From positions 112,857,054-112,921,053 of the forward strand of contig OW121846.1 of the NCBI GenBank assembly GCA_933228895.1: DNA of 64,000 nt, in the 5' to 3' direction. The notes under the pieces were generated by a model. The model was not told the origin of the DNA and did not search any database. It saw only the letters and a program-made list of their open reading frames with translations. Below, piece by piece: positions 6,121 to 28,436 of this stretch; within the stretch, counting starts at the first letter, position 1, and each line of letters begins with the position of its first letter. Origin of the DNA: Platycnemis pennipes. Taxonomy: Eukaryota; Arthropoda; Insecta; Odonata; Platycnemididae. A program made the translations under genes and the position numbers.

Positions 6121-7428
6121 CAAGCTGACCCGGCCACGCGTTGCTGTGGCTTAATCTGGTTAAATGGAAAGCGCACGTTTATAGTATGTTTAATTTCACA
6201 ATTCTTATGGGTATACAATATTTTTTGTTGTTCCATTGTCTGTGCAGATATAGACATTGTCTGGTTTGCCGACTCTAGAACACGCAACATACACGTAGAA
6301 CACGCAACACACACGCAACAAAATACACGTATATGTGAGAAGCAATCCGTGTCTAGATCTAAACCGCATAGTTCTAAAGATTGGCCCTGAGCTTTGTTGA
6401 TGGTGAATGCAAATACCAATCGAATTGGGAATAAAATCACTTAAATTGAAATGGCATATCTGTTGGATACATAGGAATGCGAGGAATGAGGAATCTTCGC
6501 CTTTGAAAGTTCCTGTCCATATTTTGGATTCTACGATGTTACTCATTAATTTATTTACTGAAAGCCGCGTGCCATTGCAAAGCTTTGGCTGGTTGATATT
6601 TAGCAACATGATAATTGGCACGCCGTTTTCAATTTCAGTATGTGCGGTAGCATCCCTGGCAGATCGAGTAAATTCAAAAATTCCGTTCGATAACCAATTG
6701 ACTCATCTGCTTCCACAACATCGTCGACGGTCTTGTACATATGTGCCTGCGTCGCTTAGAGTGTTAGACTGAATAATATTGTTTAGTTCGCAGAAGTCTT
6801 TGTTCATGGCCGCAAGAATAGCTCGTTCACTTAGCCAATTGTGATCCTTATAATTGATTTGAATATTGGGAAATACTTTTTCAACCATTTCTTCTTTTGA
6901 CTTTACTAAATTGCAAAAGTTATGAGGCAATGAATTTTTCCTGAGGTCAGATCAACCGGCACATTTCCGTTCCCAATTTTTTGCAATTTATGTGAGTATA
7001 TCTCAGCTGATCGATTGTTTTGCAGCTGGACACGCATATTTGTATATAATTTTAACGTCTTTACATGTCGTCACAAAGTAGAATATTTCAGGCAAGCATT
7101 TATTTCATCCGCTAGTGTCAATTGAGGAATTACAGGTAATGTTTGCCTGAAATGTCGTGCAAGCAATATTAATGCGTTCTCAAATGGTCTCAGGATTCCA
7201 CGGAAATCTTGCAATGATTGATCCAGAGCTTCAAGCGATGCTTTGTGCACCATTTTGCATCTCAAGCAATAACCTGGCATTTCTGAAATATTTGTCCCAT
7301 GCCAGATGATTTGAATATGTTGCACGTGACTGTTTCCATGAATTGCAAGTTCAATGGGATGCACATCCCGTCTCCAGTGTTGATATTGTATTCTCGATAT
7401 TGTACAAACCTTCATGAAGTGAACAAAA
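6121..7428 (-). pseudogene. Helitron remnant: C-terminal part of the Pif1-type helicase plus the 3' end
   Basis: Minus-strand frames give, in order, a RHFRQTLPVIP block (GDFRQTLPVIP in intact Helitrons), LPHNFCNLVKSKEE..WLSERAILA, the PIIMLLNINQPKLCNGTRL block, and FPIRLVFAFTINKAQGQSL with a YVACSRVG end. These are late motifs of the Rep/helicase of Helitrons, the rolling-circle transposons. Stops and frameshifts break the frame, and the Rep part is missing. Downstream, a GCCAC/GTGGC hairpin is followed by CGGGTCAGCTTG and then T at 6120, which fits a Helitron 3' end (usually CTRR, here CTTG) inserted before T. Confidence 0.85.
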
Positions 7429-7975
7429 CAACTTTCCAAAGCTTCATGGAAATTGGATGAATGTTGTGGTAATGCATGAAGTTATCAATATTGTATCGAT
7501 ACAGTATCGATATTGTAATGATACTTTATAAAACTTTGAAAAAAACACCTAAATAATTTCACCTCAATTTTGTAGATCAATAATGTAAGGATGTATCCAT
7601 TTTTATCGATATTATATCGATACAGTATCGATATTGAATTATCGCTTTTTTAGAAACCTTCGCGGAGCGTACTCAACAACTTTCCAAAGTTTCATGGTGA
7701 TCCGATGAATGGTGTAGTAATGCATAAAGGATAAACACATTACATACATTCGATACAGTATCGATATTGTAACGATACTTTATTTAAAAAAAACTAAATA
7801 ATTTAACCTCAATTTTGTATCAATAATGTATCGAATTATCGATACTTTAGCGATATTATATCGATAATGTATCGATATTGAAATATCGATTCCGTAGTCC
7901 TCTTTTCGGGAATTTACTCAACAACTTCCCAAAGTTTCATGGCGATCCGATGAATGGTGTAGTAATGCATAAAGG
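7429..7975 (+). repeat. tandem ~246-bp repeat rich in ATCGAT palindromes (2.2 units)
   Basis: Units start CAACTTYCCAAAG at 7429, 7677 and 7922. Each has a conserved TTTCATGG...GATGAATG.TG block followed by several TATCGATA or GTATCGATAC palindromes and an AAATAATTTNACCTCAATTTTGTA block. The array abuts the Helitron helicase, so it may be Helitron internal sequence that was tandemly amplified. Confidence 0.8.
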
Positions 7976-9857: not shown

Positions 9858-11574
9858 AAATATCAGCACAAAAGCTATTGAAGAGGAAAGGGAAGTGGAA
9901 AAGGATGATATGGGAGCATCAATATTAAGATCGGAATTCGACGCTGCAGTAAGGGACCTTCGGATGAAAAAGGCTTCTGGTATTAACGATGTACCTGCAG
10001 AACTAATGCACGAGAGAAGACTGTACTCCTCTTTACAAAACCATCTACGACATGTACTTAACAGGAGACATTCCAAGGGACTTCGAGAAAAACATCACCA
10101 TTCCTATTCCCAAGAAGAATAGAGAGGAAAAATTAGAAAAATTTAGGACTATAAGCCTGACGACACATGCATCGAAGATACTGATCAGGATCATCTAGAG
10201 AAGAATAGAATGAAAAGCAGAGGAGTTACTGGATGAAGATCAATTCGGATTCAGGAAAAGTAAGGCTACAAGGGAAGCAATATTGGCCCTTAGACTGCTC
10301 ATGGAGAAGAGAATGGAGAAAAACAAGCCGACGTTCATTGCATTTGTGGATTTAGAGAAGGCTTTTGACAACGTGGATTGGGATTCAATGCTTGGAATTC
10401 TGAAGGGAATTGGAGTGTCCTACAATGACCGAAGAATTATACTCAGTCTGTATAAAAACCAAGTAGCTGTGATGAGATCTGGACCCAGCTGTGAAGAGGC
10501 AAGAATAAGGAAAGGAGTGAAACAAGACTGTGCACTGTCTCCCACAATTTTTTATGTTTACATCGAGAGAGCCATCAATTAAATCACAGAGAAGTCTTCT
10601 GGAGAGAATCTCCACAGAGAAACAATCAGCAGGCTACGATTCGCTGATGACATCTCTCATAGCAGAGACAGAGAGGGATCTGAACAAGATTCTAGTAACC
10701 ATAGAAAGGACAATGGCCATATATCAGCTGAAGATAAATAAGACGAAGACTAAGATATTGGTGTGCAGCAAGAAAGATGAGTCCAAAACCAATGTCAAAC
10801 TAGGAAAACAAAAACTTGAAGAGGTGAAAGAGTTCTGTTACCTAGGTAGCCGAGTAACCAACGATGGACGAAGTAAGACAGAAATAATAGAATAGCCCAG
10901 GCAGAGAGGGCATTCTATCAAAAGAAGAATCTACTTACAGCTGGAAATACAAGCGTAGAAGTAAGGAAACAGTTTATCAGAACATACATCTGTAGCATGT
11001 TTCTTTACGGCAGTGAGGCATGGACGATGACAACAGCGGAGAAGAAAAGAGTGGAAGCATTCGAAATGTGGTGCTGCAGAAGAATGCTGAAGATTAAATG
11101 GATCGACCGAGTAAGTAACGAGCAAGTCCTACGAAGAGTAGGAGAAAAGAGAAGTCTGCTGAAAACTCTAAAAAGAAGAAGGGACAACTTAATCGGCCAT
11201 ATCTTGAGTCATGATGGCCTGATGAAGACTATCGTAGAGGGAAAAGTGAACGGGAAAATTGGAAAAGGCACGCCTCGTATGAGATACATGGAACAGGTTG
11301 TGAAGGATGCAAAAGAGAAGAATTACGTCACAATGAAAAGGTTAGCCGATAGAAGAATCGAGCGGAAAGCTGCGTGAAACCAATCCTAGGATTGTTAACC
11401 AATGGCAGAAATTCCACAGAGAAAAAATCATTCGCCTTGACCGGGATCCCGGTCAAGGCGAATGATTTTTTCTCTGTGGAATTTCTGCCATTGTGCATTT
11501 TCAGCGGGTAACGCCGTTAAGGTCCTCGCGGCTAGTTCGCGATCCTTCAATTTGTTAACCAATGATGATGAAAA
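9858..11574 (+). pseudogene. RTE/CFDP2-like non-LTR retrotransposon, 5'-truncated, decayed (copy 1)
   Basis: Plus-strand frames carry the reverse transcriptase core: KASGINDVPAELM, FRKSKATREAI, FVDLEKAFDNVDWD (catalytic Asp region), a QDCALSP relic of QGCALSP, RFADD in the palm, and KEFCYLGSRVTNDG with YGSEAW downstream. The frame is broken by an in-frame TAA just after ERAIN (10579-10581) and by several frameshifts. The endonuclease half is absent. The 3' end CCTAGGATTGTTAACCAATGATGATGA matches copy 2, but a foldback element (11405-11551) with a 13-bp duplication has inserted into it. Confidence 0.88.
11405..11551. mobile_element. foldback SINE-tail element with a perfect palindrome
   Basis: The insertion is flanked by TTGTTAACCAATG at 11392-11404 and 11552-11564, a 13-bp target duplication inside the 3' end of the RTE. 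Positions 11400-11493 are a perfect 94-bp palindrome (two 47-nt arms, no loop, centre GGGATCCC). Its right arm continues into a tail CATTTTCAGCGGGTAACGCC. The arm and tail match the SINE at 51838-52000, where the same sequence follows a tRNA-like head. The element is therefore an inverted duplication of the SINE region just after the B box plus one tail. Confidence 0.85.
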
Positions 11575-14820: not shown

Positions 14821-15104
14821 GCGAAGCTACTTCGCCTTATCGCAATGGGGGGGGACACAGCTGATTCTGCCAATAGGACAGTTGCGAGAATATCTGTGCG
14901 AGCAGACCTTCCGAGAACCCCCCTCCACTCCCTTCCCTTCCACGAAAAGCAGTCAAGGACGGGAAGAAAATGACGTCAATGTTATCACAGTAGCTATTTC
15001 TGTGGGCGTCACCCTATGCTTATTTTAATTTTTGATTTATGAGTGAATGGTTGAGGTTAGAAGATTAATTTTTACACTAAAATTATTTTTTTGTTTCCAT
15101 CTAT
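14821..15104 (-). repeat. R490 copy 2, inverted, 5' part only
   Basis: The reverse complement matches the first 280 bases or so of R490 (GATGGAAAC start, TCACTCATAAATC, GCGATAAGGCGAAGTAGCTT). It ends two bases from the left terminus of the endogenous viral element. Confidence 0.7.
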
Positions 15105-15106
15105 CC

Positions 15107-15405
15107 AGGTATATCCGGACGGGCATGCTCGGCCATACCCTTCCAAGAGAACCCACGCCTTTCCCGTCAGCGGTGGGAAGACCCTATGCGTTTCCCTGGT
15201 GTTCATCGTTAATTAGGCATTCGGTCATTTCCGCTTTATTTTCCCCATCTAGGGAAGAAATTAGGAGAGCTGGTGAAGTACAGCGTGATTATCACTTCCT
15301 TTTCCTCGTTGAGCGCGTCTTAATGATAGATCCATTGCCCTCCGATAGATTTATATCATTTTTCACTGCTGAGATATCGAGAAAAATTGTTCAATCTCCG
15401 GAGCC
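15107..15405 (+). repeat. left terminal inverted repeat of the viral element
   Basis: The first 108 bases or so match the complement of 27232-27341 closely. After a divergent gap the match resumes (GAGCTGGTGAAG, CTTTTCCTCGTT, TCTTAATGATAG, CCTCCGATAGATTTATA, ATATCGAGAAAAATT) up to about 15405. The 3' end of a small minus-strand ORF lies inside it. Confidence 0.85.
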
Positions 15406-15515
15406 GGAGTGGAGCAGAGAAATTCGTTCCTCTTACCGGGTGGCAATCTGTCGAAATCCGAGTAATCGGAATCCCAGGAAAGCTCCTGGACGATCCTCAC
15501 CTCAAATACAGACAT
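15363..15515 (-). CDS. small acidic ORF A of the viral left-end array
   Basis: A 50-residue frame starts MSVFEVRIVQELSWDSDYSD and ends at TGA in the left terminal repeat. The N-terminal part is paralogous to ORF B: both begin MS, share QxLS and S-DYSD, and both have a similar AT-rich leader after an AGCACATAG block. No domain is recognised. The position at the end of the element, opposite in strand to the virion genes, recalls early genes of small DNA viruses, but that is inference. A GTAAGA after PPG could also be a splice donor. Confidence 0.4.
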   Translation of the reverse strand: MSVFEVRIVQELSWDSDYSDFDRLPPGKRNEFLCSTPAPEIEQFFSISQQ

Positions 15516-15720
15516 TATCCTCCGTTAATATATTTACTAAATTATAAGAGTAGCAATACTTTGAAGTAGCTGTGTTTATAATTTCTGAGAAAATAAATAC
15601 CCGAGGGTATCTCTATGTGCTTACCTCCTAATAAAATCAACTGATTCAGGCGAGATGTAGTGGAAGTTTGACATATTAGAATCAAATATCGGTGCACTTT
15701 TCCACAAGTAATTTATTAAT

Positions 15721-15769
15721 GCGTACGACGCGTTTCGGCTCACAGAGCCATCATCTGGTACAAGACACC
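15721..15769 (-). ncRNA. hammerhead-ribozyme-like motif (left, minus strand)
   Basis: On the minus strand the core reads CAGATGA, then a GGCTC/GAGCC stem II, then GAAAC. This is the type seen in Penelope-like elements, with A in place of the conserved U of CUGAUGA. Self-cleavage may therefore be impaired. Confidence 0.5.
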
Positions 15770-16411
15770 AACATACATGTTAACAGCGTATTTATACATA
15801 GGAGAAGGGGGGGGGGAAGTAAGAGGCAGAGGGAGGGGGAGGCAAAGGTACGGTTGGGGGAACAGTGAGAGACGGAAAAACCAAGGAAGTATGGAACGGG
15901 GGAGGAGGGGTTCTTGAATGAAGGGACGCGTGTCAAAAGAAAGGGATACGAGGCGGCAGTTAGCGAGGCAAGGAGGAGGTGTGTGGGAAGTCCCCGAAAG
16001 GGAAACTGGGAAAGGAGTAAGGGTAAACAGCAGGGGTTGGTGAAGGGATTATTGGCGGTAAAATGGTCAAAATAAGGTGGGGGGAGTGGGTGGGTGGACC
16101 GGAAAAAGAAAGAGAAAAACCCGAGGAGGTGGAGTCGGTTGGCTATGGGGGGGGGGTGAAGTGGGAATTTGGTCGTTGCTTTTCGGGAAGGGGATGTTCA
16201 GGAGAGGAGAGTGGTTGACAAACACTTGATCATTCATAAGTACATTCGAATCTGATTGTAGAATTTCAAGTTGCTCCAAAATGTCTAGCCTGGAGCCCTT
16301 ACTTTCAAGATGAAGAATTTCTGGATGGAATTGACAAGAGTGAGAAGTCTGCAATAAATGTTTGGCTAGAAGTGACTTGTCATCACAATTTTAATTGGTA
16401 AATTCACAATT

Positions 16412-16460
16412 GGTGTCTTGTACCAGATGATGGCTATGTGAGCCGAAACGCGTCGTACGC
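16412..16460 (+). ncRNA. hammerhead-ribozyme-like motif (right, plus strand)
   Basis: The inverted partner of the motif at 15721-15769, with the same CAGATGA core, a GGCT/AGCC stem and GAAAC. It carries the same core substitution. Confidence 0.5.
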
Positions 16461-16469
16461 ATTAATAAA

Positions 16470-16604
16470 TTACTTGTGGAAAAGTGCACCGATATTTGAT
16501 TCTAATATGCTTACCTCCTGCTCGATTTCCTCAGGATTGTCGACATCCGAATAATCGGAATACGACGAAAGCTGTTGGGCGCTCCTCAGCTGAACTATAG
16601 ACAT
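16470..16604 (-). CDS. small acidic ORF B of the viral left-end array, cut by a Penelope-like insertion
   Basis: The frame begins MSIVQLRSAQQLSSYSDYSD and continues to EEIEQEV; the last codons now run into the inserted Penelope-like element. Before insertion it would have ended at AGCACATAG, as ORF C does. Similarity to ORF A in both protein and leader indicates tandem duplication. Function unknown. Confidence 0.4.
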   Translation of the reverse strand: MSIVQLRSAQQLSSYSDYSDVDNPEEIEQEVSILESNIGALFHK

Positions 16605-16709
16605 TATTCTTACTTAATATGAATACTACATTTTAATAGTGGCGATATAATGAAGCAATTGTGAAGCTAATTTGCAAGAAAATAGTACATCCGGATAGAG
16701 AGGAGGAGA

Positions 16710-16934
16710 CTATGTGCTTTCCTCCAGTTTTATGTCCTCTGCGGTATATTTGGGTGAGTCCGCGTTGCCCATGGTGATAGCTGGTGCTGCTAGTGGGTTT
16801 TCACTGCCTGAGGAACTAACGACGGGTGAGATCTGTCTCGGTGTCCACTTGGTAGGGCTGGTGGATGAGGGAGATACTCTCTGGAGCGATAAGGTGTGGG
16901 TGGGAGAGAAGGATAATGAAAGGACGCGCGTCAT
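16710..16934 (-). CDS. ORF C of the viral left-end array (Ser/Pro-rich)
   Basis: A 74-residue frame rich in Ser, Thr and Pro. Its C-terminus (AEDIKLEEST then stop) lines up with the ORF B end EEIEQEVST, and the DNA around the stop, GAGGAAAGCACATAG, matches GAGGTAAGCACATAG of the neighbouring unit. It is therefore probably a third, diverged unit. No recognised domain. Confidence 0.35.
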   Translation of the reverse strand: MTRVLSLSFSPTHTLSLQRVSPSSTSPTKWTPRQISPVVSSSGSENPLAAPAITMGNADSPKYTAEDIKLEEST

Positions 16935-16987
16935 TGGGTCTTTCCGATGCCTTTCAGAATTTCTCTAAAAGACTGTCCACAGCCGCG

Positions 16988-17245
16988 TTAATGGGTAATT
17001 ACTAACGTTGTAGGGAGCGGTATAGGCGCCACGGTGATAGTCGAGTCGGAGAATAGCCAATTATACCTTAATATTGGGGATGCTTCGGAAGCGGTGAGAA
17101 AGTTTCCTATTGTATTTCCGGAATTACGAGCTGTACTTTCGCTGTGTCTCCTGCGGGGAGAGACATTAGTTATAAATTCATTGTTGGTTAGAGACCCTTC
17201 ACTATGTAGCGCTGGAGTTGGAGTCGAGAGAAAAGCACTTGCCAC
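16988..17245 (-). CDS. ORF D, hypothetical, next to the left-end array
   Basis: An 85-residue Ser/Thr-rich frame on the same strand as ORFs A-C. No motif is recognised and coding is uncertain. Confidence 0.25.
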   Translation of the reverse strand: MASAFLSTPTPALHSEGSLTNNEFITNVSPRRRHSESTARNSGNTIGNFLTASEASPILRYNWLFSDSTITVAPIPLPTTLVITH

Positions 17246-17734
17246 GAACGGTAAAAATACGCTGATTACCTGTTTATTCTGTCCATGCTCGTTAAATAAT
17301 ACGTGAGTTTAATTATTATTAACGACGCGTTCTCTCGTCGTAGGAGACAATATTGAACAATCCAGACGTGGGTCGGTTGGACACCATTTAATTATGGATC
17401 ATTAGTGATGGCTATCTTGCTGCAATATGTTGCAGCTTTCAGAGTTGAAGCAATAAGCTTTCAATGAAATGGCAGTGGCGTGAAAATGGTATATGGGAAA
17501 GTGGTGATTACCTGTTTATTCCGTATGCGGCCATTAGTCCCTATGTGGCTTTTAACTAACCTTAGCGAGTGCACTAACAAAATTGGCGCGCAAATTGGTA
17601 GGAGAATAAACGAGGGTTTATGTTGGACAACGTAATGAAGAGGTTGATTTGAAAGGGAGTGAGAACTCCCTTTTTCAAACCGCTTGAGCGTGAGAAAATT
17701 TACCAGAAGCCGTTGCATTCCAACGTCGCCCCTT

Positions 17735-17752
17735 GAGCTGCCTATATAAAGG
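17735..17752 (+). promoter_or_regulatory. candidate TATA promoter in the viral element
   Basis: CCTATATAAAGGG sits in GC-balanced sequence about 200 bases upstream of the first plus-strand frame (17958). It is a good TATA-box match; no start site can be shown. Confidence 0.45.
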
Positions 17753-17957
17753 GATAGATGACGCAGTGTCAATCCATAAATTGTCCGAAATTTTGCGTCG
17801 CCTACTCAGTTCTCTGCCTTCAGCTACCCGTTTGAGGGCAGGACTTCTGCATCTGCGACGAGTTCGTTGATATACCGTGTTTCAGTATCGATATCCTATT
17901 CAGAAGGTGAATCAACATATTTTCCAGCACTCTAACTCCTGATTTTGCCATCATTAG

Positions 17958-18200
17958 TTGCTTTCTCCCAGAGATTCAGAGAATATTAAGCTACGATCTA
18001 TCGTGGAGGATAATAACTCTAACCTACGCAATCGCACACTCGCAAGCCGCAGAAGCAGCATCGCCATCGAGCAAGGAGCTTCTAAGGGAGTTGGACCTTC
18101 GATATTAGTTTCTTCGAGTCGCTCGGGTTCCCCATTCGGACCTCCGGGCGTGGACTACCCGAGAGTCCTACGTCACCACACGAGTAAGGAAGCCGGCTAG
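17958..18200 (+). CDS. hypothetical ORF downstream of the TATA box
   Basis: An 80-residue Ser/Arg-rich frame. Its 3' part overlaps a sequence block (GGACCTCCGGGCGTGGACTA) that recurs at 19237 and 19322 in the RTE leader. That end is thus likely RTE 5' UTR sequence, and the frame may be partly chimeric. No known domain. Confidence 0.25.
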   Translation: MLSPRDSENIKLRSIVEDNNSNLRNRTLASRRSSIAIEQGASKGVGPSILVSSSRSGSPFGPPGVDYPRVLRHHTSKEAG

Positions 18201-18278
18201 ATTGGGTGAAAGCCGTGAGTTTTGTTTACCTGAAGATATTAAAGCTTTTCGGGGAGAAGTTAAAATCGAGTAGACACG

Positions 18279-18599
18279 ATGGAAGACATTTTTGCGTGTG
18301 TACCGGCAATTGGAATAATTCGCGCTCACCGTGAGGGAGCATATGACACTGTCTCTCTTTTAAATGCCGCATTGAACGGTTTAGTTCATCGCATGACAGA
18401 GATGAATGAGAAAGTGGACATGAGCGACTATGTGAGACTGGTGGAGGAAGTTAAAAAGGCTGAAGATGCAGCCGCTTCGGAGGCGCCCCTTCGGGAAATT
18501 GGCGATGCTAGTCAAACATTGCCCGATGGGGGGCGGCTTGCTTGTCAAGGTGTCGGCTCCACATTGCCGCTATTAACTGGAGAGCTATTTTCGCAATAG
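18279..18599 (+). CDS. hypothetical 106-residue ORF in the viral element
   Basis: The frame starts MEDIFACVPAIG and has a predicted helical middle rich in Glu and Lys (MNEKVDMSDYVRLVEEVKKAED). No homologue is recognised. It lies between the TATA box and the RTE insertion, on the strand of the virion genes, so it may be a viral gene truncated by the LINE. Confidence 0.35.
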   Translation: MEDIFACVPAIGIIRAHREGAYDTVSLLNAALNGLVHRMTEMNEKVDMSDYVRLVEEVKKAEDAAASEAPLREIGDASQTLPDGGRLACQGVGSTLPLLTGELFSQ

Positions 18600-19189
18600 G
18601 TGGCAAGTAGCAACTCTAACAATTTAGCGACGGGAGCTTCCTGCGTTGCGACGCGACCGCTTCCTGGATTTGAAGAAGTGAAGTGTACGATTTTTTGTGA
18701 ATAACTGGTGGTAAATATTCTAGGTTTTCATTACTCTATCAAAGTATATCCATACTACAGATTCCTCGTTGCTGAGCTTAAAGCCACCGAGTGCGTCCAC
18801 CGGGTTGCGGATGGTGGGTCGACCTCTAGATATAGAGGTTAGCTGCGAGATAAGCGAGTTTACTCGTCGAATAAGCAGTCGTGGACAAAAAGTGACGGCA
18901 TTCCGAGGGGGTATTTGGTCTATCCCTGGGTAAGGTAAGCCATTAAATAATACAGAACCTGTGATTATGCCGTGACTTGGCGACGGAGGCCGCCAACAAT
19001 TACGCTTCCCATCACCCGGAGGAGAGGGCAGCAGCTCTTCTTCACATGAGTGAAGGTGGAGACCACAGTCGTCGCTACAGCGACACTCATTTCACTACAG
19101 GAATGGTGACATATACTTTAACGACTATAGTACTGCCATGTGGAAGGCAAGGGGAAACCACCACATTATTACACAAGAGTCGCGACGTG

Positions 19190-19345
19190 ATGGAACCCTC
19201 TTGAGTAAAAAATTCCGGAAAATATTGTAAAATAGTCCCCATTCGGATCTCCGGGCGTGGACTACCCATGGAACCCTCTCGAGTAAAATATTCCGGAAAA
19301 TATTGTAAAATAGTCCCCATTCGGACCTCCGGGCGTGGACTACCC
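19190..19345 (+). repeat. tandem ~75-bp leader repeats of RTE copy 2
   Basis: Each unit reads TGGAACCCTCTYGAGTAAAA, then TTCCGGAAAATATTGTAAAA, then CCCCATTCGGAYCTCCGGGC and GTGGACTACCC. A third partial copy lies at 18135. Tandem 5' UTR units are common in RTE-type LINEs. Confidence 0.75.
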
Positions 19346-21693
19346 GAGAGAGTACATCACTCAAGTGTGATAGACATTTTAGGGTAGGACGGTGGAACGT
19401 GCTATCATTCCGACCTGCGGAAGACTGGAGAACTTGATGGTGGAAATGCGGAGAATGGACCTTGATGTATTAGGAATCAGTGAAATGAGATGCCCCGAAG
19501 GAGGAGACTTTTGGAGTGGAAGTTATACAATTATTCACACCGGATCCCTGAATGGTAATGCTGGAGTAGGCATAATGCCCAGGAAGAGTGCAGGACTACG
19601 TGTGAAGAGCTTCCTGCAGTACAGTGAGAGGATTATAAGGGTTAAAATTGAAACTAAGCCTACAGATACCATTGTGGTGCAAGTTTACATGCCTACGTCG
19701 GACTACGAAGATGAAGAAGTGGAAGACGTCTACGAAGATATCACGGAAGTAATAAAACAGGTAAGAGGAGAAGAAAACCTAATTATTTTAGGAGACTAGA
19801 ACGCTGTCATCAGAGAAGGTCAAGATGGAAAAATAACAGGAAAATATGAATTAGGAAAACGAAATGAAAGAGGAGAAACACTGCTGGAGTTCTGCTGACA
19901 ACAGAAGGTAGTGGTTGCCAACACATTGTTTAAAAATCACAACCCAAGAAATTACAATGAAGAGAACGTCTCTACGGCTGTATGCCATGCAAAGTTGAAG
20001 AATAAAATAAAACGGAACGCAAGATACAATGCCACGAGGGAAAAGAATGGAGAATTTTTGACTGAAAATGAAGACAAAGTGAAGAAAATGAAAGAATATA
20101 TTGAAGAGTTATGCAACGGGAACAGCATCGAAAGTTATTGAAGAGGAAAGCGAAGTCGAAAAGGATGGTATGGGAGTATCAATATTAAGATCGGAATTCG
20201 ACGCTGCAGTAAGGGACCTTCGGATGAATAAGGCTTCTGGTATTAACGATGTACCTGCAGAACTAATTAAAAATGCACGAGAGAAGACTGTACTCCTCTT
20301 TACAAAACCATCTACTACATGTACTTAACAGGAGACATTCCAAGAGACTTCGAGAAAAACATCATCATTCCTATTCCCAAGAAGAATAGAGAGGAAAAAT
20401 TAGAAAAATTTAGGACTATAAGCCTGACGATACATGCATCGAAGATACTGATCAGGATCATCTAGAGAAGAATAGAATGAAAAGCAGAGGAGTTACTGGA
20501 TGAAGATCAATTCGGATTCAGGAAAAGTAAGGCTACAAGGGAACCAATATTGGCCCTTAGACTGCTCATGGAGAAGAGAATGGAGAAAAACAAGCCGACG
20601 TTCATTGCATTTGTGGATTTAGAGAAGGCTTTTGACAACGTGGATTGGGATTCAATGCTTGGAATTCTGAAGGGAATTGGAGTGTCCTACAATGACCGAA
20701 GAATTATACTCAGTCTGTATAAAAACCAAGTAGCTGTGATGAGATCTGGACCCAGCTGTGAAGAGGCAAGAATAAGGAAAGGAGTGCAACAAGGCTGTGC
20801 ACTGTCTCCCGTAATTTTTTATGTTAACATCGAGAGAGCCATCAATTAAATCACAGAGAAGTCTTCTGGAGAGAATCTCCACAGAGAAACAATCAGCAGG
20901 CTACGATTCGCTGATGACATAGCTCTCATAGCAGAGACAGAGGAGGAGCTGAATAAGATGCTAACAACCATGGAAAGGGCAATGGCCATACATCTGCTGA
21001 AGATTAATAAGAAGAAAAGTAAGATATTGGAGTGCAACAAGAGAGAGTAGGCCAAAACCAACGTTACATTAGGAAAACAGAAACTGGAAGGGGTGAAAGA
21101 GTTCTGTTACCTGGGAAGCAGAGTAAACAACGATGGACCAAGCAAGAAAGAAATAGTGAGTAGAACAGCCCAGGCAAAGAGGGCATTCTATTAAAAGAAG
21201 AATCTACTTACAGCTGGAAATACAAGCTTGGAATTAAGGAAACAATTCATCAAAACGTATATCTGGAGCATGTTTCTTTACGGCAGAGGCGTGGACGATG
21301 ACAGCAGCGGAGAGGAAAAGGGTGGAAGCATTCGAAATACGGTGCTACGAATGATGAAAATAAAATGGAATGATCGAGTGACAAATGAGGAAGTCCTAAG
21401 AAGAGTGGGAGAAAAGAGAAGTCTGCTGAAAACTATAAAAAGAAGACAGGACAACCTAATCGGCCATATCTTAAGACACGATGGCCGTATGAAGACAATC
21501 GTCGAAGGAAAATTGAACCGGAAGAATGGAAAAGGCAGGCCTCGTATGAGTTACATAGAACAGGTCGTAAAGGACGTGAAAGAGAGGAGTTACGTCTTGT
21601 GAAGAGGTTGGCCGATAGAAGAATCGAGTGGAGGGCTGCGTCAAACCAATCCTAGGATTGCTGACCCATGATGATGATGATGAATCATTAGCC
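19190..21693 (+). pseudogene. RTE/CFDP2-like non-LTR retrotransposon with 5' leader repeats (copy 2)
   Basis: The leader has two tandem units of about 75 bp (19190-19345). Then comes an APE-type endonuclease: LDVLGISEMR, GNAGVGI, QYSERIIRVKIETKPTDTIV, VQVYMPTSDYEDE, with a stop at the catalytic GDWN site (reads GD then TAG then NA). The 3' part of the endonuclease is deleted around 19940. The reverse transcriptase follows with FVDLEKAFDNVDWD, QGCALSP and RFADD, then GRPRMSYIEQ near the end and an ATGATGATGATGA tail. It shares with copy 1 the same in-frame TAA after ERAIN (20846-20848). It is inserted within the penton-like gene of the viral element. Confidence 0.9.
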
Positions 21694-21696
21694 CTC

Positions 21697-22163
21697 TATC
21701 GACGAGTTGGTCAAAGCGATAAATGAAGACCTAGAAAAAATATCACACCAAAATAAGGTTACAATCACGTACTAAGAGCATACAGGTGTTTTATTACAGG
21801 CAGGAAACACAGTAGTTTTTACCGTCGAAGATTCTCGCGCAACAGCTAGGATTTGGGCCCGGTGAAGATATTGTAAAGGAGAAAAAATCCGCTCGAAAAC
21901 CAGAACTTGGTATCGGTTTTCCCTCGCAAATTTACGTGTATTGTGACGTCGTCGAGCCGCAGGTCATAGGTGACACCGTTGCACCTCTTTTGCGTATAGC
22001 AAGTACGGTAGCGGAACAAAATACATTCAGGCTTGATATTAGTCACGTTTTCGTCAGGCCTTTCTACTTATCGGTTTTAAAGCGAGAATTTGAAACAGAT
22101 GAGATAGATTTAAAAACGAATTCGGCCATCCATTGCCATTTCTTTACGGAACATAAGTGGTAG
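21697..22163 (+). pseudogene. penton-like capsid protein of the viral element (broken)
   Basis: The reading starts at IDELVKAINEDLEKIS just after the RTE tail. It continues, with one in-frame stop (about 21772) and one frameshift (about 21850), into LGFGPGEDIV, IYVYCDVVEPQVIGDT, APLLRI and VLKREFETDEIDL. This pattern is what I know from the small single-jelly-roll, penton-like protein of Polinton/adintovirus loci, where it precedes PX and hexon. The N-terminus was removed or separated by the LINE. The vertex role is inferred from family and order. Confidence 0.6.
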
Positions 22164-22190
22164 TGCTTAACTTTCGTAAGAGAGAAAATA

Positions 22191-22610
22191 ATGGGGAAGA
22201 CTAGTAGTTATTGCGATCCTTATATGCGGTACTACCTCAACCAGGTAGGAAACGGAGTGGGTACGGTGTATCGAGGAGTTAGTTATCAGAAAGGGCAAGG
22301 CATTGGAAGTTTTCTTGGCGGTCTGTTTCGCTCAGTACTCCCGTTTCTTAAAAGCGGCGCCCGGGCCGTGGGCCGAGAGGCTCTCAAGGCAGGTGTGAAT
22401 GCTCTGGGAGACATGGCTTCTGATGGCCAACAGTCGATTAAGAGAGTGAAACGGAAGCGGGTTTTAGAGGCTGTAGAGGATCTAGACAGAAAAGCAGGAA
22501 ACAAAATGCAGAAAATGTCAGATGCTGGATACCCTCTCAGGACGGGCAAGCGAGAGCTTCAGTTGACGGCTAACCGTCGCGCAAGTAAGATGGGTTCTCC
22601 AAGTGATTAA
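22191..22610 (+). CDS. pVI/PX-like minor virion protein of the viral element
   Basis: An intact 139-residue frame, the only clearly unbroken gene of the cluster. An aromatic N-terminus (YCDPYMRYYLNQVG) leads to the glycine-rich amphipathic signature VYRGVSYQKGQGIGSFLGG, LFRSVLPFLKSGA, VGREALKAG, as in PX/pVI-like minor capsid proteins of adintoviruses. A basic KRVKRKR stretch follows. Adenovirus pVI acts inside the capsid and on membranes during entry and is cut by the viral protease; this role is inferred. The ATG is 27 bases after the penton-like stop. Confidence 0.72.
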   Translation: MGKTSSYCDPYMRYYLNQVGNGVGTVYRGVSYQKGQGIGSFLGGLFRSVLPFLKSGARAVGREALKAGVNALGDMASDGQQSIKRVKRKRVLEAVEDLDRKAGNKMQKMSDAGYPLRTGKRELQLTANRRASKMGSPSD

Positions 22611-22795
22611 CGAAAGCGTGAGTCGAAGAATTCCAATAAAAGAAAGAAAAATACAGTTGGGAAAGATATATTTTCGTAACATGTCGTTCTTACATCAACA
22701 GTCGTGCGAGTGTGCAAAAACAGAGCTACATTTATTCTTGCTTCCACCGACGCAAACAAGTATTGAAAACGGACAATGGATATATTACAAGCCTG

Positions 22796-23028
22796 GTGTG
22801 GAATCACGGAAGTATCTCTCGCGTTGTCACAATCTTTATCGTTAACCCTTACCTCTAGAGTAGCGCAGGGTTAACAATAACCGTCTATAAAATTCGCTTC
22901 ACTGATTGTGATAAGCGATTTGAAGTGCTGTGCGAAAAATTAAGAACGGAGATCACGTTCTCTCCGAGATATGTTAAATCAAAAAATAACGATGACGCTA
23001 GCGGACGCCTTATGAAAAACCATGATCG
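22796..23028 (+). repeat. 240-bp dispersed repeat inserted in the hexon-like gene (copy 1)
   Basis: The block starts GTGTGGAATCACGG and ends about CATGATCG; hexon homology stops and resumes across it. It is flanked by AAGCCTG and AAGCCCTG, a possible 7-8 bp target duplication. A second copy lies at 34608-34845. An internal inverted repeat GTTAACCCT/AGGGTTAAC lies around 22840-22876. It is not an intron: removal at GT-AG sites does not restore the frame. Confidence 0.7.
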
Positions 23029-23742
23029 AAGCCCTGTTTCCACTTGGACCGATGACGCTCCATTGGAGTTCGTCATTCCAGGGCATGGTGATAAGCGTGT
23101 GTATCTCTCGCACACGTTAACTAGCGTAACATGGATGATTGAACGAAGAGCTCAAGCAGCGGATGATATCTCAGTGATTGGCCCCGTTAACCTGTGGTTA
23201 CATTCTTTATTTTCACAATTTAACATATTTCTGAATCAAAAACTTGTCACACCGCCTAGCCATATATATTCATAAAGAGCTTACATAGAAACACTCCTCA
23301 CCTACGGACCCGCAGGAAAATCATCTCATCTAACTACTGGTCTATGGTATGATGATGCTCCTGGAATGATGGACGATACACATCACAATTTAGGATCCGT
23401 CAAACGTCGAGAGTTCACAAATGACGGACAAGAAGTCTAACCAATGGGCCATCTTCATTGCGATTTATTCGACCAAGAAAAAATCCTTTTAAACGGAGTT
23501 GAGTTGCGATTAAAGCTGGTAAGATCTAAGATTGGTTTTTATTTAATGGGATCGCGGGACTACGAAAACGTGGCGGTGAAAATGGTCGATGCAGTTCTGC
23601 TAGTATGGAAAGTTGAAATAAGTCCATCGGTGCTCATAGCACACATCCGCGCTTTAGAGAAAGCCACGGCTAAATATCCTATTACACGGGTGGACATAAA
23701 AATGTCAACAGTTCTCGGGACGTGCAGAGTAAAACCATTGAT

Positions 23743-23865
23743 CTAAATCTGAAGATTCAGGCGATATGGAGTGGAAGCGAAACGTGATAACACAGAAAAA
23801 ACACAAGCCAAATCCACAAAAATTTGTGGGTTTGTGGATTTGGCTCGTATTTTTTCTTTCTGTGT
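23743..23865. mobile_element. small hairpin insertion in the hexon-like gene
   Basis: TAAAACCATTGAT occurs at 23730-23742 and again at 23866-23878, a 13-bp duplication. Within the insertion, 23789-23820 and 23831-23866 are near-perfect inverted arms (AACACAGAAAAAACACAAGC and complement). The net addition of 136 bp shifts the frame of the hexon-like gene. Confidence 0.75.
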
Positions 23866-24543
23866 TAAAACCATTGATAATATTTTCTTGGGTCAACTTC
23901 CGAAACGCGTCACAATTGAGTTCGTCTCCAACGCAACATTCAACGGGGACATTAAGAAGAATCCTTACAATTTTCAAAATTTCAATCTGACCTTCCTATC
24001 GCTTTATATGGATGGACTTCAAATTCCCTCGAGGTCACTGCAACCAGATTTCACCGGCTCAGGCTACTTCCTACAGGCATATCACACATTCACCGGCACC
24101 GTCATTCACTTCTTGGACAATGGTAATGGTATCCCCAGAGATAAATATAAAGACGGTTTTTTCCTTACAACATTCGATTTTAGACCCTATCTGGAAGCAA
24201 ATTCGAGCCACTGGAGTCTGCAGAAACACGGTAGACTCCGCTTGGAAGTTAGATTTTAAAACGCGTTGCTAGAAACTATGAACTGTCTAGTTTATGCAGA
24301 GTTTAATAACGTTCCCGTAATTGATAGACACCGAAAAGAGGGCGTGGATTATAGTAGTTAGAACCACGGAGGGGAGTCAACGTATGAATAGAGTGGGGGA
24401 AGCTAGTCGGTGAAAGGAGAGCAGGCAACAGAAGGCGTTTAACGAGGATATGCCCGCTTCACTCCCACTCGCTGCCGCATCCTCTCGCGACGCAGGTCTC
24501 CCCTAATCAGTCTTGTCTCTGCTCTATCTACTACTGGCTGATC

Positions 24544-24825
24544 ATGACTGCAATAGTGGATATTCAAAATTTTGAAGGGAAGGGGGACTTGGTGGTGAAA
24601 GAATTATCCATTGTTAGGACGGGATCGTCGGAGGTGAAAACCTGGATATTCAAACCACCATATAATGGGAGGGAAAGGTGCGCCGCGGACCAAAAGCAGG
24701 ATCATTGGCTTTGCGAAAATCATCACGGGCTACTTTGGGAGGACGGGGATACGGAATACGATGATCTCAAATACGTTCTTCACTTGCACTTATCTACGTG
24801 CAAACTAGTATTTTCAAAAGTGTGA
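24544..24825 (+). CDS. unnamed conserved KPPY protein of the viral element, N-terminal part
   Basis: The frame begins MTAIVDIQNFEGKGDLVVKE and contains IFKPPYNG, then DHWLCENHHGLLWEDGDTEY. I have the impression that proteins with FKPPFP..WL..NHHG..W are common in F54H12.2-type loci, but I cannot assign a function. After the stop at 24823, shifted frames continue the same protein type (CRHRKREYEFTASNCPNLRE) into the BIR segment, so the original gene was longer and perhaps fused to the BIR domain. Confidence 0.5.
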   Translation: MTAIVDIQNFEGKGDLVVKELSIVRTGSSEVKTWIFKPPYNGRERCAADQKQDHWLCENHHGLLWEDGDTEYDDLKYVLHLHLSTCKLVFSKV

Positions 24826-24957
24826 TTTCTCCAGAGAATATTAAAATATAGAGTAGTGCTCGATATGGAAATTCTCTGATGTCCCTCTCTGAGGAAAATA
24901 AAACATATATCCTCTCGAGAAGTCAGCAGCATTTATTGTCATCGGAAAAGAGAGTAT

Positions 24958-25243
24958 GAATTCACGGCAAGTAATTGCCCCAATTTACGGGAATGGTTCC
25001 TGAAAAACGGAGAGGATAAATTAATATCTACCAATTTTCGCCTAAAGGCTTACGCTGGGGCCTCGCAATGATTTGAGCTGAAAACCGAAAGTCTCGCAGA
25101 AGCCGGATTTTTCTATTCCAGAGTACGCGATGAGGCAGTTTGCTGCATATACGGTCTCGCTCTGGGGTCTTGGGATTCATGGGATATTCCGGAGAAGGAA
25201 CACATCGATGGAATCCTTACTGCCCACTGGTTAGGATCCCAGG
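24958..25243 (+). pseudogene. degenerate BIR (IAP-type) domain of the viral element
   Basis: One frame reads NLREWFLKNGED, then FRLKAYAGASQ, a TGA stop, and ESLAEAGFFYSRVRDEAVCC..LGSWDSWDIPEKEH. This matches the BIR fold, the zinc-binding module of inhibitor-of-apoptosis proteins: the RL start, the LAEAGFFY strand, D-x-V-x-C, G-L-x-L-x-x-W, and D-x-P-x-x-EH. The second zinc Cys of CxxC is Tyr here (CCIYG) and the last Cys after EH is absent. With the stop, this marks decay. Viruses use such proteins to block host cell death; that role is inferred. Confidence 0.68.
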
Positions 25244-25403
25244 TAGCTTCCAGCCTCCATACATAAATAAAAATGAAATAAGGTGGTATTCATCCTTTGA
25301 AAACAGTTGCATTTAACAGATGGACAGTATTCAGTTAGAGAGGTCCCTGAGCAGTCATAAAGAGACCGCTCTATTTTTCGCGCTCGTGTTTGCTGCGGAT
25401 TAA

Positions 25404-25735
25404 TTGCCGGATAATTGCCGTCACCCCTTCGCTCTAATTGTAAATACCGACCCCGCATGGAAGCAAGGAACGCATTGGATAGCGATATTCATTGATGCTA
25501 ACGGGCGGGGTCAATATTTTGACAGCTACGGAATACGGCCCTTCATCAAAGATCATATAACCTTTCTTGATAGGGAGTGTTCAACGTGGTGCTATAACAG
25601 AAAAAAATCCAAGGGTGGACATCGGCGACTTGCGGAAATTATTCATCCTTGTTCTTATTTTTCCGCTTCTTGGGCTATACGATGCGACATTTTACCATTT
25701 TTTTAATTCAGGAACTACCGGAAAAAACGACTTAA
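25404..25735 (+). pseudogene. adenain-type cysteine protease of the viral element (frameshifted)
   Basis: The protease family matures capsid proteins in adenovirus-like viruses. The first frame (25404 to about 25606) gives PFALIVNTD, then GTHWIAIFID with the catalytic His, and GQYFDSYGIRP with the catalytic Asp region. The nucleophile block, ATCGNYSSLF (C-G-x-Y in place of CGQYC), is in another frame, 25610-25735. The shift lies at the A7 run at 25601-25607. Positions upstream of 25404 are too decayed to extend. Order after the hexon fits an adintovirus-like cluster. Confidence 0.78.
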
Positions 25736-25940
25736 TCGTCCTTATCATGTACAACATAATTTTTGGGAAGCATTGCAAGTCGTACGTTGTGAATAAGCGT
25801 TCGATAAATACGCAAATTGGTAGGGCTAGAACTCTACTGCAATAATCCTCCTCGATGACAGATTCGCGCATACGCCATGCTGTTTCCCCTCCTACCCCCT
25901 CTCCAGACTTCCTCTCCTCGACTCACCCCTCCACCGCGCG

Positions 25941-25955
25941 TGAGGGTATATAGAC
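25941..25955 (+). promoter_or_regulatory. candidate TATA promoter before the basic ORF
   Basis: GAGGGTATATAGAC lies after a C-rich stretch. A TATA box here would place the RNA start downstream of the ATG at 25956, so the in-frame ATG at 26031 is the likelier start of the next gene. Confidence 0.45.
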
Positions 25956-26276
25956 ATGCCCTCCAGAGTAGAGGCACAGTACCGATTCAAATTTCACAGC
26001 ACATCACCGCCTCCCGAGCAATGGCAGGAAATGCCTTTTCGTACACCTAGGAGACTCACCAGGAGAGGTTCCTCAAAGGGTGGAAGTCGTCTGCCCCGTC
26101 CCAACTCCCCACGTCCACCAAGAAGTGGGAAGTTTCGTCCTCCGTCCTATAAACCTTTCATCAGCCCCGATATGTCGGCCGTCGAAGACGGGGCGAGTTC
26201 AGCGGAGACGAAATCAACCTATAATCAACGTCCTCAGCGCCTTGGACTTATCGATTTTGCATATCGCTTGCATTAG
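25956..26276 (+). CDS. basic Arg/Pro-rich ORF of the viral element
   Basis: The frame from 26031 starts MPFRTPRRLTRRGSSKGGSR and stays rich in Arg, Pro and Ser (RPNSPRPPRSGKFRPPSYKP). Basic, disordered small proteins of this kind bind DNA in several virus cores, but no homologue is recognised, so that is speculation. If the TATA at 25947 is used, the upstream ATG at 25956 would not be transcribed. Confidence 0.4.
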   Translation: MPSRVEAQYRFKFHSTSPPPEQWQEMPFRTPRRLTRRGSSKGGSRLPRPNSPRPPRSGKFRPPSYKPFISPDMSAVEDGASSAETKSTYNQRPQRLGLIDFAYRLH

Positions 26277-26417
26277 TGCGATACCAAACGAGTGCCAATC
26301 GGCTTCGACATAAAAAACGCTAAAGTTGGTGGTTCCCGTATACAAATGGATTACAGAGACTTTTGTGACTTGTAGAAATGTGTAAGTGTTAAAGCATCGT
26401 ACTTTTATCACGATACT

Positions 26418-26726
26418 ATGCCCCATGCCATCAGCATTGGAAAATTCGTGCTGAAATTCAAGTCTCTATTCGGAACCAAGTCTGTTGTTCTCGGAGAAAT
26501 GAATTCATCTCATGATCACGGTGGTGAGTGCCTAGCGAAAACGTCGTGGTATGGATTGCTATACTTTGCCGAATGTGATAGACTCCGATGGGAGGAACGG
26601 TGTGATTGGTCTCCGCATGCGCAAGAAATAGTGACGTATACGGACTCAATTTTTAATGCTGCGGAACCTGAGGACGGCGAAATTCGCGAGTGGATTAACT
26701 GGGAACAAGTGACATGTGCAAAATGA
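26418..26726 (+). CDS. hypothetical 102-residue ORF near the right end of the viral element
   Basis: An intact frame starting MPHAISIGKFVLKFKSLFGT, with two Trp-rich blocks (SWYGLLYF, EWINWEQ) and acidic spacers. It is not recognised. Reasonable composition and the strand shared with the virion genes favour a real viral gene over chance. Confidence 0.4.
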   Translation: MPHAISIGKFVLKFKSLFGTKSVVLGEMNSSHDHGGECLAKTSWYGLLYFAECDRLRWEERCDWSPHAQEIVTYTDSIFNAAEPEDGEIREWINWEQVTCAK

Positions 26727-27065
26727 ATTTGGGCGAGATCGCCACCGCGCCACCATCCCTGAATCTTCAAGCGCTTGCAGAAGAGATAGTCTATTCTAAG
26801 TACTCGTGAAGGAAAAAATTTTCTCGTGGAGAATATCTCATTCACTCATTCAAATTCTTCGGAAAATTTAAAAGTGTAAATGAAACATATATTTCATTAA
26901 TTAAATTCAATTAAATGCTAATTTGCTTTCAATTCTGTACTCAACGCCATGCTTTTTAAAAACCACCCAATTCTTCTCTGTACAACAAATATTTAATAAA
27001 CGTACATGCGAAATTAACGTATTGCATTCCGTGATGTGTTTCTCTACCTTACCGCACCCATCTCC

Positions 27066-27341
27066 CATATAATTACCACCCTGGCTCCTGAGATTGAATA
27101 ATTTTTCTCGATATCTCAACAGTGACGAATAATATAAATCTATCGGAGGGCTGAATAAATGGAGCTATCATTAAGACGAACTGAACGAGGAAAAGGTAAT
27201 GAAACTCACGCCGATCTTCACCAGCTTCACCACCGAACGATGAACACTAGGGAAACGCATAGGGTCTTCCCACCTCTGACGAGAAAGGCGTGGGTTCGCT
27301 GGGAAGGGTATGGCCGAGCATGCCCGTCCGGATATACCTGG
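27066..27341 (-). repeat. right terminal inverted repeat of the viral element
   Basis: The complement of the left terminus, ending GGATATACCTGG at 27341. Divergence between the two arms is moderate, with small indels, so the element is not recent. Confidence 0.85.
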
Positions 27342-28436
27342 GTTGCGGGAGACCGTTCTCATCACCCATTCTCTATCCACCCCCCCTCGTTCCATAGCCC
27401 CCGCGCCAAGGTTGGCGGAGAACATAACTAGCGAAGCAGCACCCGACAATTGGAGTGCGGTGACTTACCTGCGCCGACTGGATGGAGTTCAACAAGGCGG
27501 TGAGCGGAGGGGGTGGGTCGGCTACGGCTGAAAATCTCCCTTCCCCCATATGTTCCATAATCCCGGAAGAGGTCAGTGAAATTCCCCACCCCTAATTAAC
27601 CACGCCCCATCCCTAATTAACCTCCCTCACCCCCTCGTATCATAGTCCCGCGAATAGTAGTCCCGTCGGTCCTGCCAAGCACGGTAGTGTCGGTTTAGCC
27701 CCGCTGCACACTTCCAAAAAAGAATGGCAATTTTAGCATGCCAGCAACAGATTAAGTAAACTGATAAAACCAGAGAATTTAAGGGAGGACTTACCGATGG
27801 TGAATTTTCAAAACCGAAGAACGCAGTATGCTGCACAAGTTGGCACAAGTCTTTAAATTTTCCAATAAATATTGCGACGAGAGTACGTGTCTGGCGGGAA
27901 CGAAAACCAGCTGTGCATACCCGTCATGGCAGCCGCTCAACTAGTTAGCGTTCATTCCAGCACGCATCATAAAATTTTAAGGTTGCTTTGACCCACCAGG
28001 TGGGTTGTTCCCCCCAATTTGTTCGTTTCCTCCCATAAATGCCCATAAGTGCCACAAACTTAAGCTTGTGGCACAAATTAACTGAATGGAATGAAACACG
28101 TCAAAGAGGGAGAAATTGTATATTTCAATTTTAACATATTTTAAAAATATTATGTTGCAAAACTTAATAGATTTTCACACATTGCAATGCCATGGTACAT
28201 CATACAATGAATATTTGGTATAAAAAGCTGTGATGCCCACTCCCACAATTTGGATTCCACTTTTGGACTTCACAATTTCTACATTTACATGTTATCATTA
28301 TGCAATGACGACTTCTCCATCAATCTGGTTGTGTTAAAAGTAGAAGTCATCTGGAGAAAGGGGCGGGACTAAGTTATTCGAGCCAAAAATAACATTGTTT
28401 CTACATGACAACCAGTCCGTGGATCATTTAATGCAA
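27342..28436. other. intergenic, C-rich simple sequence and a hairpin
   Basis: Right flank of the viral element. It has imperfect CCCCTAATTAACC units near 27585-27625 and a perfect inverted repeat GTGCCACAA/TTGTGGCAC at about 28049-28074. No gene is seen. The 3' UTR of the Nudel-like gene lies at the right end. Confidence 0.4.

What the first reader, a model, noticed from the sequence alone, without database searches (positions are those of the whole stretch)
15107..27341. Adintovirus/Polinton-like endogenous virus with inverted termini but no visible polymerase or integrase
Both terminal repeats and a collinear virion cluster (penton-like, PX-like, hexon-like, protease) are visible, yet the replication and integration genes that define Polintons and adintoviruses were not found. 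Either a large internal deletion, possibly near the RTE insertion, removed them, or this is a capsid-bearing lineage that replicates differently. At 12.2 kb including insertions, the virus-derived part is small for a full Polinton.
Basis: partly seen in the sequence, partly recalled or inferred. Interest (0 to 1): 0.88.

Follow-up and report, generated by a model that had tools for sequence, protein, structure and literature searches.

The report
Broken Polinton that lost polymerase, integrase
The window holds an old, broken copy of a virus-like mobile element (a Polinton) that still shows its shell genes but has lost nearly all of its DNA-copying and integration genes, most likely by deletion, because a fuller sister copy elsewhere in the same genome still carries those genes in the missing place.

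Summary
Inverted terminal repeats (15105-15412; 27076-27341) flank remnants of penton, PX-like, hexon and protease genes; no integrase or ATPase gene was found between them.

A sister copy in the same genome (C6:122,973,930-122,994,114, 6-bp target-site duplication) has matching end regions, the same gene order and PolB, an A32-like ATPase, rve integrase with chromodomain, penton, PX-like, hexon, a BIR-domain gene and protease. Against it the window copy lacks about 8.0 kb. It keeps about 137 codons of PolB, then about 80 bp of unplaced filler, an RTE retrotransposon without target-site duplication, then mid-penton. That RTE insertion is independent of the one in the sister's ATPase gene. The true right end is 27661; the outer left repeat is gone.

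[quoted passage not shown] PolB is absent at the three best-read ones and truncated at one. They look like snap-back defective genomes that integrated as units. The family also carries a conserved BIR-domain fusion gene.

The parts
14901..15103 (.). flanking repeat that abuts the truncated left terminal repeat; other copies at about 45757 and 13263 diverge at nearly the same point
15105..15412 (+). left terminal inverted repeat, inner part (outer part missing)
15672..16509 (.). insert with 100-bp, 99% inverted ends; absent from sister copy C6b
16507..18263 (.). left-end viral region, largely collinear with the sister copy (17046-17259 and 17895-18029 unmatched); gene content uncertain
18264..18684 (+). 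5' remnant of the PolB gene, DNA for about 137 codons; frame stops at 18599
   Evidence: 76% identical over 111 aa to the PolB frame of C6b; frame; breakpoint; codon count
18685..18764 (.). unplaced filler between PolB stub and RTE; no significant match in the loci then fetched
18765..21680 (+). RTE-type non-LTR retrotransposon insert (class by recall), no visible target-site duplication, at the deletion joint
21698..22163 (+). penton gene, 3' part only, broken
22191..22610 (+). PX-like (glycine-rich) virion protein gene, C-terminus lost
   Evidence: 42 homologues of 58 candidates, alignment, C6b match
22681..24259 (+). hexon (major capsid protein) gene, broken by stops, frameshifts and two inserts
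   Evidence: fold of the C6b homologue
22796..23032 (.). repeat inserted in hexon; same repeat at 34609-34838
23742..23865 (.). hairpin-bearing insert in hexon, flanked by a ~12-bp duplication
24544..25266 (+). broken exonuclease-like (weak lead) + BIR-domain gene
   Evidence: BIR E=9e-8 in the window; one open 276-aa frame in C6b
25320..25845 (+). adenain-like protease gene, broken
   Evidence: Peptidase_C5 E=0.069, below cut-off; open 176-aa frame in C6b
25944..26726 (+). right-end gene of unknown function, broken
   Evidence: open 320-aa frame in C6b
27076..27661 (-). right terminal inverted repeat; true terminus at 27661

Best explanation
The window holds a decayed copy of a Polinton/Maverick-family element that keeps parts of both terminal repeats and its broken virion genes but only a stub of the polymerase gene and no integrase, and because a sister copy in the same genome carries those genes in the gap it most likely lost about 8 kb by deletion, probably at or with the RTE insertion. 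How the family works: complete members are predicted to copy linear DNA from their terminal repeats with a protein-primed PolB, to package it with the ATPase into double-jelly-roll capsids matured by the protease, and to integrate with the rve integrase (inferred from gene content; the 6-bp target-site duplication is shown for C6b). Shown for the window copy: matching TIRs and gene order, breakpoints in PolB and penton, an RTE with no target-site duplication at the joint, and frames broken by stops, shifts and further inserts. Inferred: one event, an RTE insertion accompanied by target deletion and repair filler, removed the block after integration. The window copy is predicted to be inert.
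For: Own-genome TIR search: 8 matches, two of them the window's own arms. All 17 window pieces tested match C6b in order, two of them only weakly (E 0.003 and 0.009). C6b holds DNA_pol_B_2 (E=9e-8 and 3.5e-22 in two frames), rve (E=1.7e-15) with Chromo (E=1.2e-6), and an A32-like ATPase frame (Pox_A32 E=0.0021, below cut-off). C6b ends carry a 6-bp duplication. Breakpoints: window 18684 against L012:3163, window 21698 against L013:4773. The C6b RTE has its own 12-bp duplication inside the ATPase gene; the window RTE has none, and the two RTEs (88.7% identical) are no closer to each other than to a third copy (90.7-90.8%), so the insertions look independent. Left and right TIRs differ by 9.2% in the window and 1.3% in C6b, so the window copy is the older integrant by this measure.
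Against: The window's own target-site duplication cannot be tested because the left terminus is lost. About 80 bp at the joint are unplaced. A deletion made before integration, with the RTE landing later, is not excluded. The ATPase and protease Pfam scores are below their cut-offs. Only one fuller copy of this close kin, itself damaged, was compared.
Confidence: 0.9

Rival explanations
1. The deletion happened during replication, before integration: a defective genome with both ends but no polymerase block integrated with help from complete relatives, and the RTE landed in it later.
For: Deleted and rearranged members of the family did integrate as units in this genome: palindromes at five loci with perfect 6-bp duplications, and an internal-deletion member at C8 that keeps PolB but lacks PX, penton and integrase.
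Against: No second copy with the PolB-to-penton joint was seen in the fetched loci; the RTE lies exactly at the joint and lacks a duplication, which one RTE-associated deletion explains more simply.
Confidence: 0.3
2. A capsid-bearing lineage that never used PolB or integrase and replicates in another way.
For: The window copy has virion genes and no detected integrase or ATPase gene.
Against: The PolB 5' end is present at the right place, and the sister copy has the full set.
Confidence: 0.02
3. The two arms are unrelated repeats that happen to bracket viral fragments.
For: Repeat ends also occur at C3 and C7 (C7:45.02 Mb), where none of the 17 gene pieces matched in the roughly 9 kb fetched on each side.
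Against: The same arms bracket C6b with a 6-bp duplication and the same gene order.
Confidence: 0.01
4. The retained capsid genes were kept by the host for a function.
For: The virion cluster is the part that remains.
Against: Hexon, protease and the BIR gene are interrupted by stops, shifts and inserts.
Confidence: 0.01

Closest known systems
Polinton/Maverick (Polintoviricetes)
   Same: TIRs, PolB, rve integrase with chromodomain, A32-like ATPase, adenain-like protease, double-jelly-roll capsid protein, and a 6-bp duplication in C6b; vertebrate Mavericks also have 6-bp duplications (PMC8097293, passages seen)
   Different: The window copy keeps only a PolB stub, and no integrase or ATPase gene was found in it. 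The family ends read ACTACT...AGTAGT (one base off on the left of C6b), the reverse sense of one vertebrate end motif. It has an extra BIR-domain gene.
Adintoviruses (animal-associated Polinton-like viruses)
   Same: rve integrase with C-terminal chromodomain, PolB and hexon in one element, C6b; definition from PMC11071296 (passages seen)
   Different: The OTU-like domain of PolB was not tested, and hexon was not compared with the reference adintoviruses. The window copy fails the integrase and PolB criteria.
Snap-back defective genomes of AAV
   Same: Palindromic viral genomes with the same end twice, symmetric or with a loop (PMC8235507, abstract and passages seen); resembles the palindromic Polintons at C2, C4, C5, C9 and C10
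   Different: AAV is a parvovirus and its snap-back genomes were read from virions; here the palindromes are chromosomal insertions with target-site duplications, in a family with family-B polymerase genes. The window copy is not a palindrome.

Membership tests
Polinton/Maverick | Terminal inverted repeats | tested here: met
   Window; family. Outer left part missing in the window.
Polinton/Maverick | 6-bp target-site duplication | tested here: inconclusive
   Left terminus lost in the window copy; met in C6b.
Polinton/Maverick | PolB gene | tested here: not met
   Window copy: DNA for only ~137 codons. Met in C6b. The window copy is therefore filed as a deletion derivative of the family, not as a complete member.
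Polinton/Maverick | rve integrase | tested here: not met
   The stretch that holds it in C6b is absent from the window copy; present with a chromodomain in C6b.
Polinton/Maverick | Packaging ATPase | tested here: not met
   Absent from the window copy; in C6b a frame with Pox_A32 E=0.0021, below the curated cut-off, interrupted by an RTE.
Polinton/Maverick | Double-jelly-roll major capsid protein | tested here: met
   Window pieces match the C6b hexon; the C6b model (mean pLDDT 77.7) matches Sputnik and mavirus capsid proteins, E 2e-15 to 1e-12.
Polinton/Maverick | Adenovirus-type protease | tested here: inconclusive
   Peptidase_C5 E=0.069 in the window piece, below cut-off.
Adintovirus | PolB with N-terminal OTU-like domain | not tested
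   No Pfam hit to such a domain in the C6b PolB frames at E up to 0.1; structure not predicted.
Adintovirus | rve integrase with C-terminal chromodomain | tested here: not met
   Not in the window copy; met in C6b.
Snap-back defective genome | Same viral end at both termini in inverted orientation | tested here: not met
   The window copy has a left-end and a right-end region. Met at C4, C5 and C2 by gene content and termini; at C10 and C9 by termini, with part of the arms unread.

The most novel reading that the evidence does not exclude
This genome is a germ-line archive of defective Polinton genomes. Derivatives without PolB, or with part of it, formed by at least three separate snap-back events (right end at both termini; one type carries two virion clusters and one nearly whole integrase) integrated as units at five loci, each with a perfect and different 6-bp target-site duplication, one type at two sites and probably three. 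That is what defective-interfering DNA of a linear, end-primed virus would leave behind. It would make animal Polintons behave like replicating viruses with trans-complemented satellites, and the window copy may be an old, simple-deletion member of the same population.
Probability: 0.6. Interest if true: 0.78.

Novelty: new member of a known kind. Interest (0 to 1): 0.45.

Why it matters
The window element is an ordinary fossil: a Polinton copy whose missing genes are explained by a sister copy in the same genome. The hexon family is large (99 matches, some of them pieces of one gene; many frames open), the closest members carry a conserved BIR-domain fusion gene, and some derivatives are palindromes with two right ends that integrated with clean target-site duplications. 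Whether animal Polintons replicate as linear virus-like DNA and support defective satellites has had little direct evidence (my reading, not searched exhaustively). These loci make it testable with long reads and PCR.

Tried and rejected
A lineage without PolB: rejected by the PolB stub and the sister copy. A shared RTE insertion in window and C6b: rejected, since the C6b RTE has a 12-bp duplication in the ATPase gene, the window RTE has other neighbours and no duplication, and both RTE copies are slightly closer to a third copy than to each other. A second viral fragment at 34609-34838 (a match to the window hexon): rejected, since this stretch is absent from the C6b hexon and is a repeat inserted in the window hexon. 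Fold-back priming by inverted microhomology at the palindrome junctions: not above chance (best stems 3, 1 and 4 bp; 0.50, 0.99 and 0.15 of random positions do as well), so not claimed. Viral relatives in IMG/VR: none confirmed by tblastn in 2 scans. PHROGs: nothing convincing. Solved structures by sequence for the PX-like protein: one weak hit to a designed protein. The model of the BIR gene's protein is poor (mean pLDDT 59.3; residues 170-276, the BIR half, under 50), and its best fold match is E=1e-3 to an exonuclease domain, so the exonuclease label is only a lead. A count of palindromes and of PolB genes by the genome search did not complete. Reading the C10 junction: the 801 bp I took turned out on rechecking not to hold it (it lies in the long arm), and five later requests did not complete. 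Papers on Polintons with palindromes, snap-back or defective-interfering forms: none seen in the listings (at most 15 rows listed each); the head-to-head mention in PMC12721341 concerns gene orientation (passages). BIR genes in Polintons: none evident in the 12 rows listed of 658.
Full report
OBSERVATION. The inverted repeats are real. 15105-15412 pairs with 27076-27341 over 260 aligned bases with 24 substitutions. Six-frame reading shows many short frames. Pfam on ten window pieces gives BIR above cut-off (E=9.2e-8) and Peptidase_C5 below cut-off (E=0.069); the other weak hits are not convincing. The PX-like protein has 42 homologues among 58 candidates; the only ones with an organism name are two from the dragonfly Ladona fulva.

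THE SISTER COPY. The window lies in an unnamed 1.79-Gb assembly of 88 contigs. A search with the left repeat gave 8 matches, two of them the window's own arms. I fetched both sides of the other six sites and compared them with 17 window pieces. Two of these sites are the two ends of one element, C6b. It runs from C6:122,973,930 to 122,994,114 with the duplication TGCATC (coordinates computed). Reading left to right, the frames are: PolB in two overlapping frames (L012:2750-5914 and 5823-7529), an A32-like ATPase frame (L012:8076-8588) split by an RTE, two or three small genes, rve integrase with chromodomain (L013:3340-4518), penton, PX-like, hexon (461-aa frame), a BIR-domain gene, protease and a right-end gene. 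Pfam: DNA_pol_B_2 E=8.9e-8 and 3.5e-22, rve 1.7e-15, Chromo 1.2e-6, Pox_A32 0.0021 (below cut-off), BIR 3.4e-8. C6b itself is damaged: PolB has a frame break and the ATPase gene an RTE. The other sites: an old copy upstream on C6 with a PX-like fragment, one on C44 with a right-end gene fragment, and C3 and C7 with no gene match.

WHAT THE WINDOW COPY LOST. All 17 window pieces match C6b in order, two weakly; DNA alignment covers most of the left region and nearly all of penton to right end outside the inserts. The break runs from window 18684 (L012:3163) to 21698 (L013:4773). By these coordinates C6b has 11.4 kb there, of which 3.4 kb is its own RTE and duplicated target, so about 8.0 kb of element sequence is missing from the window: most of PolB, the ATPase, the small genes, the integrase and the start of penton. 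In its place the window has about 80 bp with no significant match in the loci then fetched, then an RTE that ends in an ATG-repeat tail. The C6b RTE is flanked by a 12-bp duplication; the window RTE is not. Window and C6b RTEs are 88.7% identical, and each is about 90.7% identical to a third copy at 9864-11404, so they look like separate insertions. One RTE insertion with target deletion is the simplest reading (inference). Further inserts absent from C6b lie at about 15672-16509, 22796-23032 and 23742-23865.

TRUE ENDS. Four of the seven end exactly in TAGTAGT (C6b right, C7, C3, window); C6b left is one base short, and the C6 upstream copy and C44 are diverged there. On the left the window copy stops at 15104 against a repeat also found at about 45757 and 13263; no match to the outer right repeat was found elsewhere in the window. 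TIR divergence is 9.2% in the window and 1.3% in C6b, so the window copy is the older integrant by this measure.

THE FAMILY. The C6b hexon finds 99 matches in the genome, with 95 of 403 candidates scored, so these are lower bounds; some matches are pieces of one gene. They form groups near 79-94%, 63-64% and 39-40% identity, and most listed frames have no stop. The predicted hexon fold (mean pLDDT 77.7) matches Sputnik, PBCV-1 and mavirus capsid proteins. Of 3107 homologues 120 are listed; the named ones listed are from insects, several called F54H12.2-like. In a FastTree of 51 hexon sequences (13 distinct ones from this genome's best 20 loci plus 38 that I picked from the list) the genome's sequences form one clade with one unnamed contig (support 0.988), next to a Ladona fulva sequence. 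That hints at a dragonfly or damselfly host but does not prove it.

THE BIR GENE. The 20 best-scoring hexon loci (of 99 matches; C6b included) all show this gene between hexon and protease or hexon and the end of the piece. Open frames were found by script in 19 of 20. The BIR zinc pattern is present in 17 of 19; C6b and L039 lack it. The window copy also lost at least one zinc cysteine (sequence). Six representatives give 15 pairs; 12 have finite dN/dS, 0.09-0.24, with near-saturated dS in several. In the protein collection 5 of 156 candidates are homologues, and 2 of the 5 have a Pfam BIR domain. The first half may be exonuclease-like (weak). A role in blocking host cell death is an inference.

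PALINDROMIC RELATIVES. The hexon list contains three pairs of hexons in opposite directions with identical 6394-bp spacing, on C4, C5 and C10. At C4 and C5 the centre joins the ATPase 3' part to integrase residue ~287 of an inverted second arm. The arms are 99.9% identical in the centre, the two loci are 99.98% identical over 5151 bp, and both arms run through penton, PX-like, hexon, BIR gene, protease and right-end gene to the same terminus. No PolB match was found in any piece of C4 or C5, with the C6b PolB or with an open PolB frame from C8 as query. The duplications are AAGAAG at C4 and CACATA at C5; sequences beyond the ends differ. C10 has the same hexon spacing, the duplication CCAGTG, both ends matching those of C4, and an 801-bp stretch identical to the long arm of C4 in the opposite orientation; its junction and most of its arms were not read. 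A second type at C2 joins the sequence beside the ATPase start to the BIR-gene arm, with CAGGCC and no PolB match in the pieces read (1.5 kb unread); three close relatives (C7 and two on C9) match it up to that point and continue into the end of PolB (18-21 residues matched each). A third type at C9:100.9 Mb joins the inside of PolB to the inside of hexon, with GTCGTA; 2.8 kb of its right arm are unread, but hexon end to terminus measures 3235 bp there as at C4 (computed). C8:134.46 Mb is a different derivative: PolB kept (an open frame of 1418 residues running off the piece), PX, penton and integrase missing between ATPase and hexon. Thus 5 of the 10 loci whose region upstream of hexon I looked at (C6b, C2, C4, C5, C10, C7, three on C9, C8) are palindromes; they were chosen partly because of paired hexons, so this is no frequency. 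Five of five palindromes have perfect 6-bp duplications. Frames for penton, PX-like and integrase are open in the C4 and C5 centres. Snap-back replication followed by integration, using an integrase in cis or in trans, explains the two right ends and the duplications (inference). AAV forms comparable snap-back genomes (PMC8235507, passages). An inverted duplication formed in a chromosome and mobilised later is not excluded. An assembly artefact is unlikely given different flanks and matching duplications at five sites, but raw reads were not seen.

VERDICT. The window element is a decayed deletion derivative of a Polinton family: ordinary in kind. The palindromic relatives are the unusual part and lie outside the window.

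Noticed in passing
L041-L046, L037-L040 (C4, C5); L047-L049 (C10); L036, L050, L051 (C2); L035, L061-L063 (C9:100.9 Mb): Palindromic Polintons with the right end at both termini, no PolB match (C4, C5, C2), PolB truncated (C9) or centre unread (C10), each with a perfect 6-bp target-site duplication; three junction types.
   Followed up: partly
L013:7251-8081 and the 20 best hexon loci; window 24544-25266: A gene joining a possibly exonuclease-like domain to a BIR domain sits between hexon and protease and looks to be under purifying selection in this family.
   Followed up: partly
L034/L064 (C8:134.46 Mb): Internal-deletion Polinton: PolB and ATPase kept, but PX, penton and integrase missing between ATPase and hexon.
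   Followed up: partly
own genome, hexon matches at about 40% identity: A second, very uniform hexon group (429-aa frames, dozens of sites) suggests a recent burst of another Polinton lineage.
   Followed up: no
window 18129-18165: A 37-bp stretch identical to part of the RTE 5' repeat unit (19314-19350) lies in the left viral region; origin unexplained.
   Followed up: no
window 23742-23865: About 124-bp hairpin-bearing insert in the hexon gene flanked by a ~12-bp duplication, MITE-like.
   Followed up: no
window 36484-36701: 78-bp tandem repeat, about 2.8 copies, in a GC-rich stretch (36-41 kb, 48-58% GC) unlike the rest of the window.
   Followed up: no
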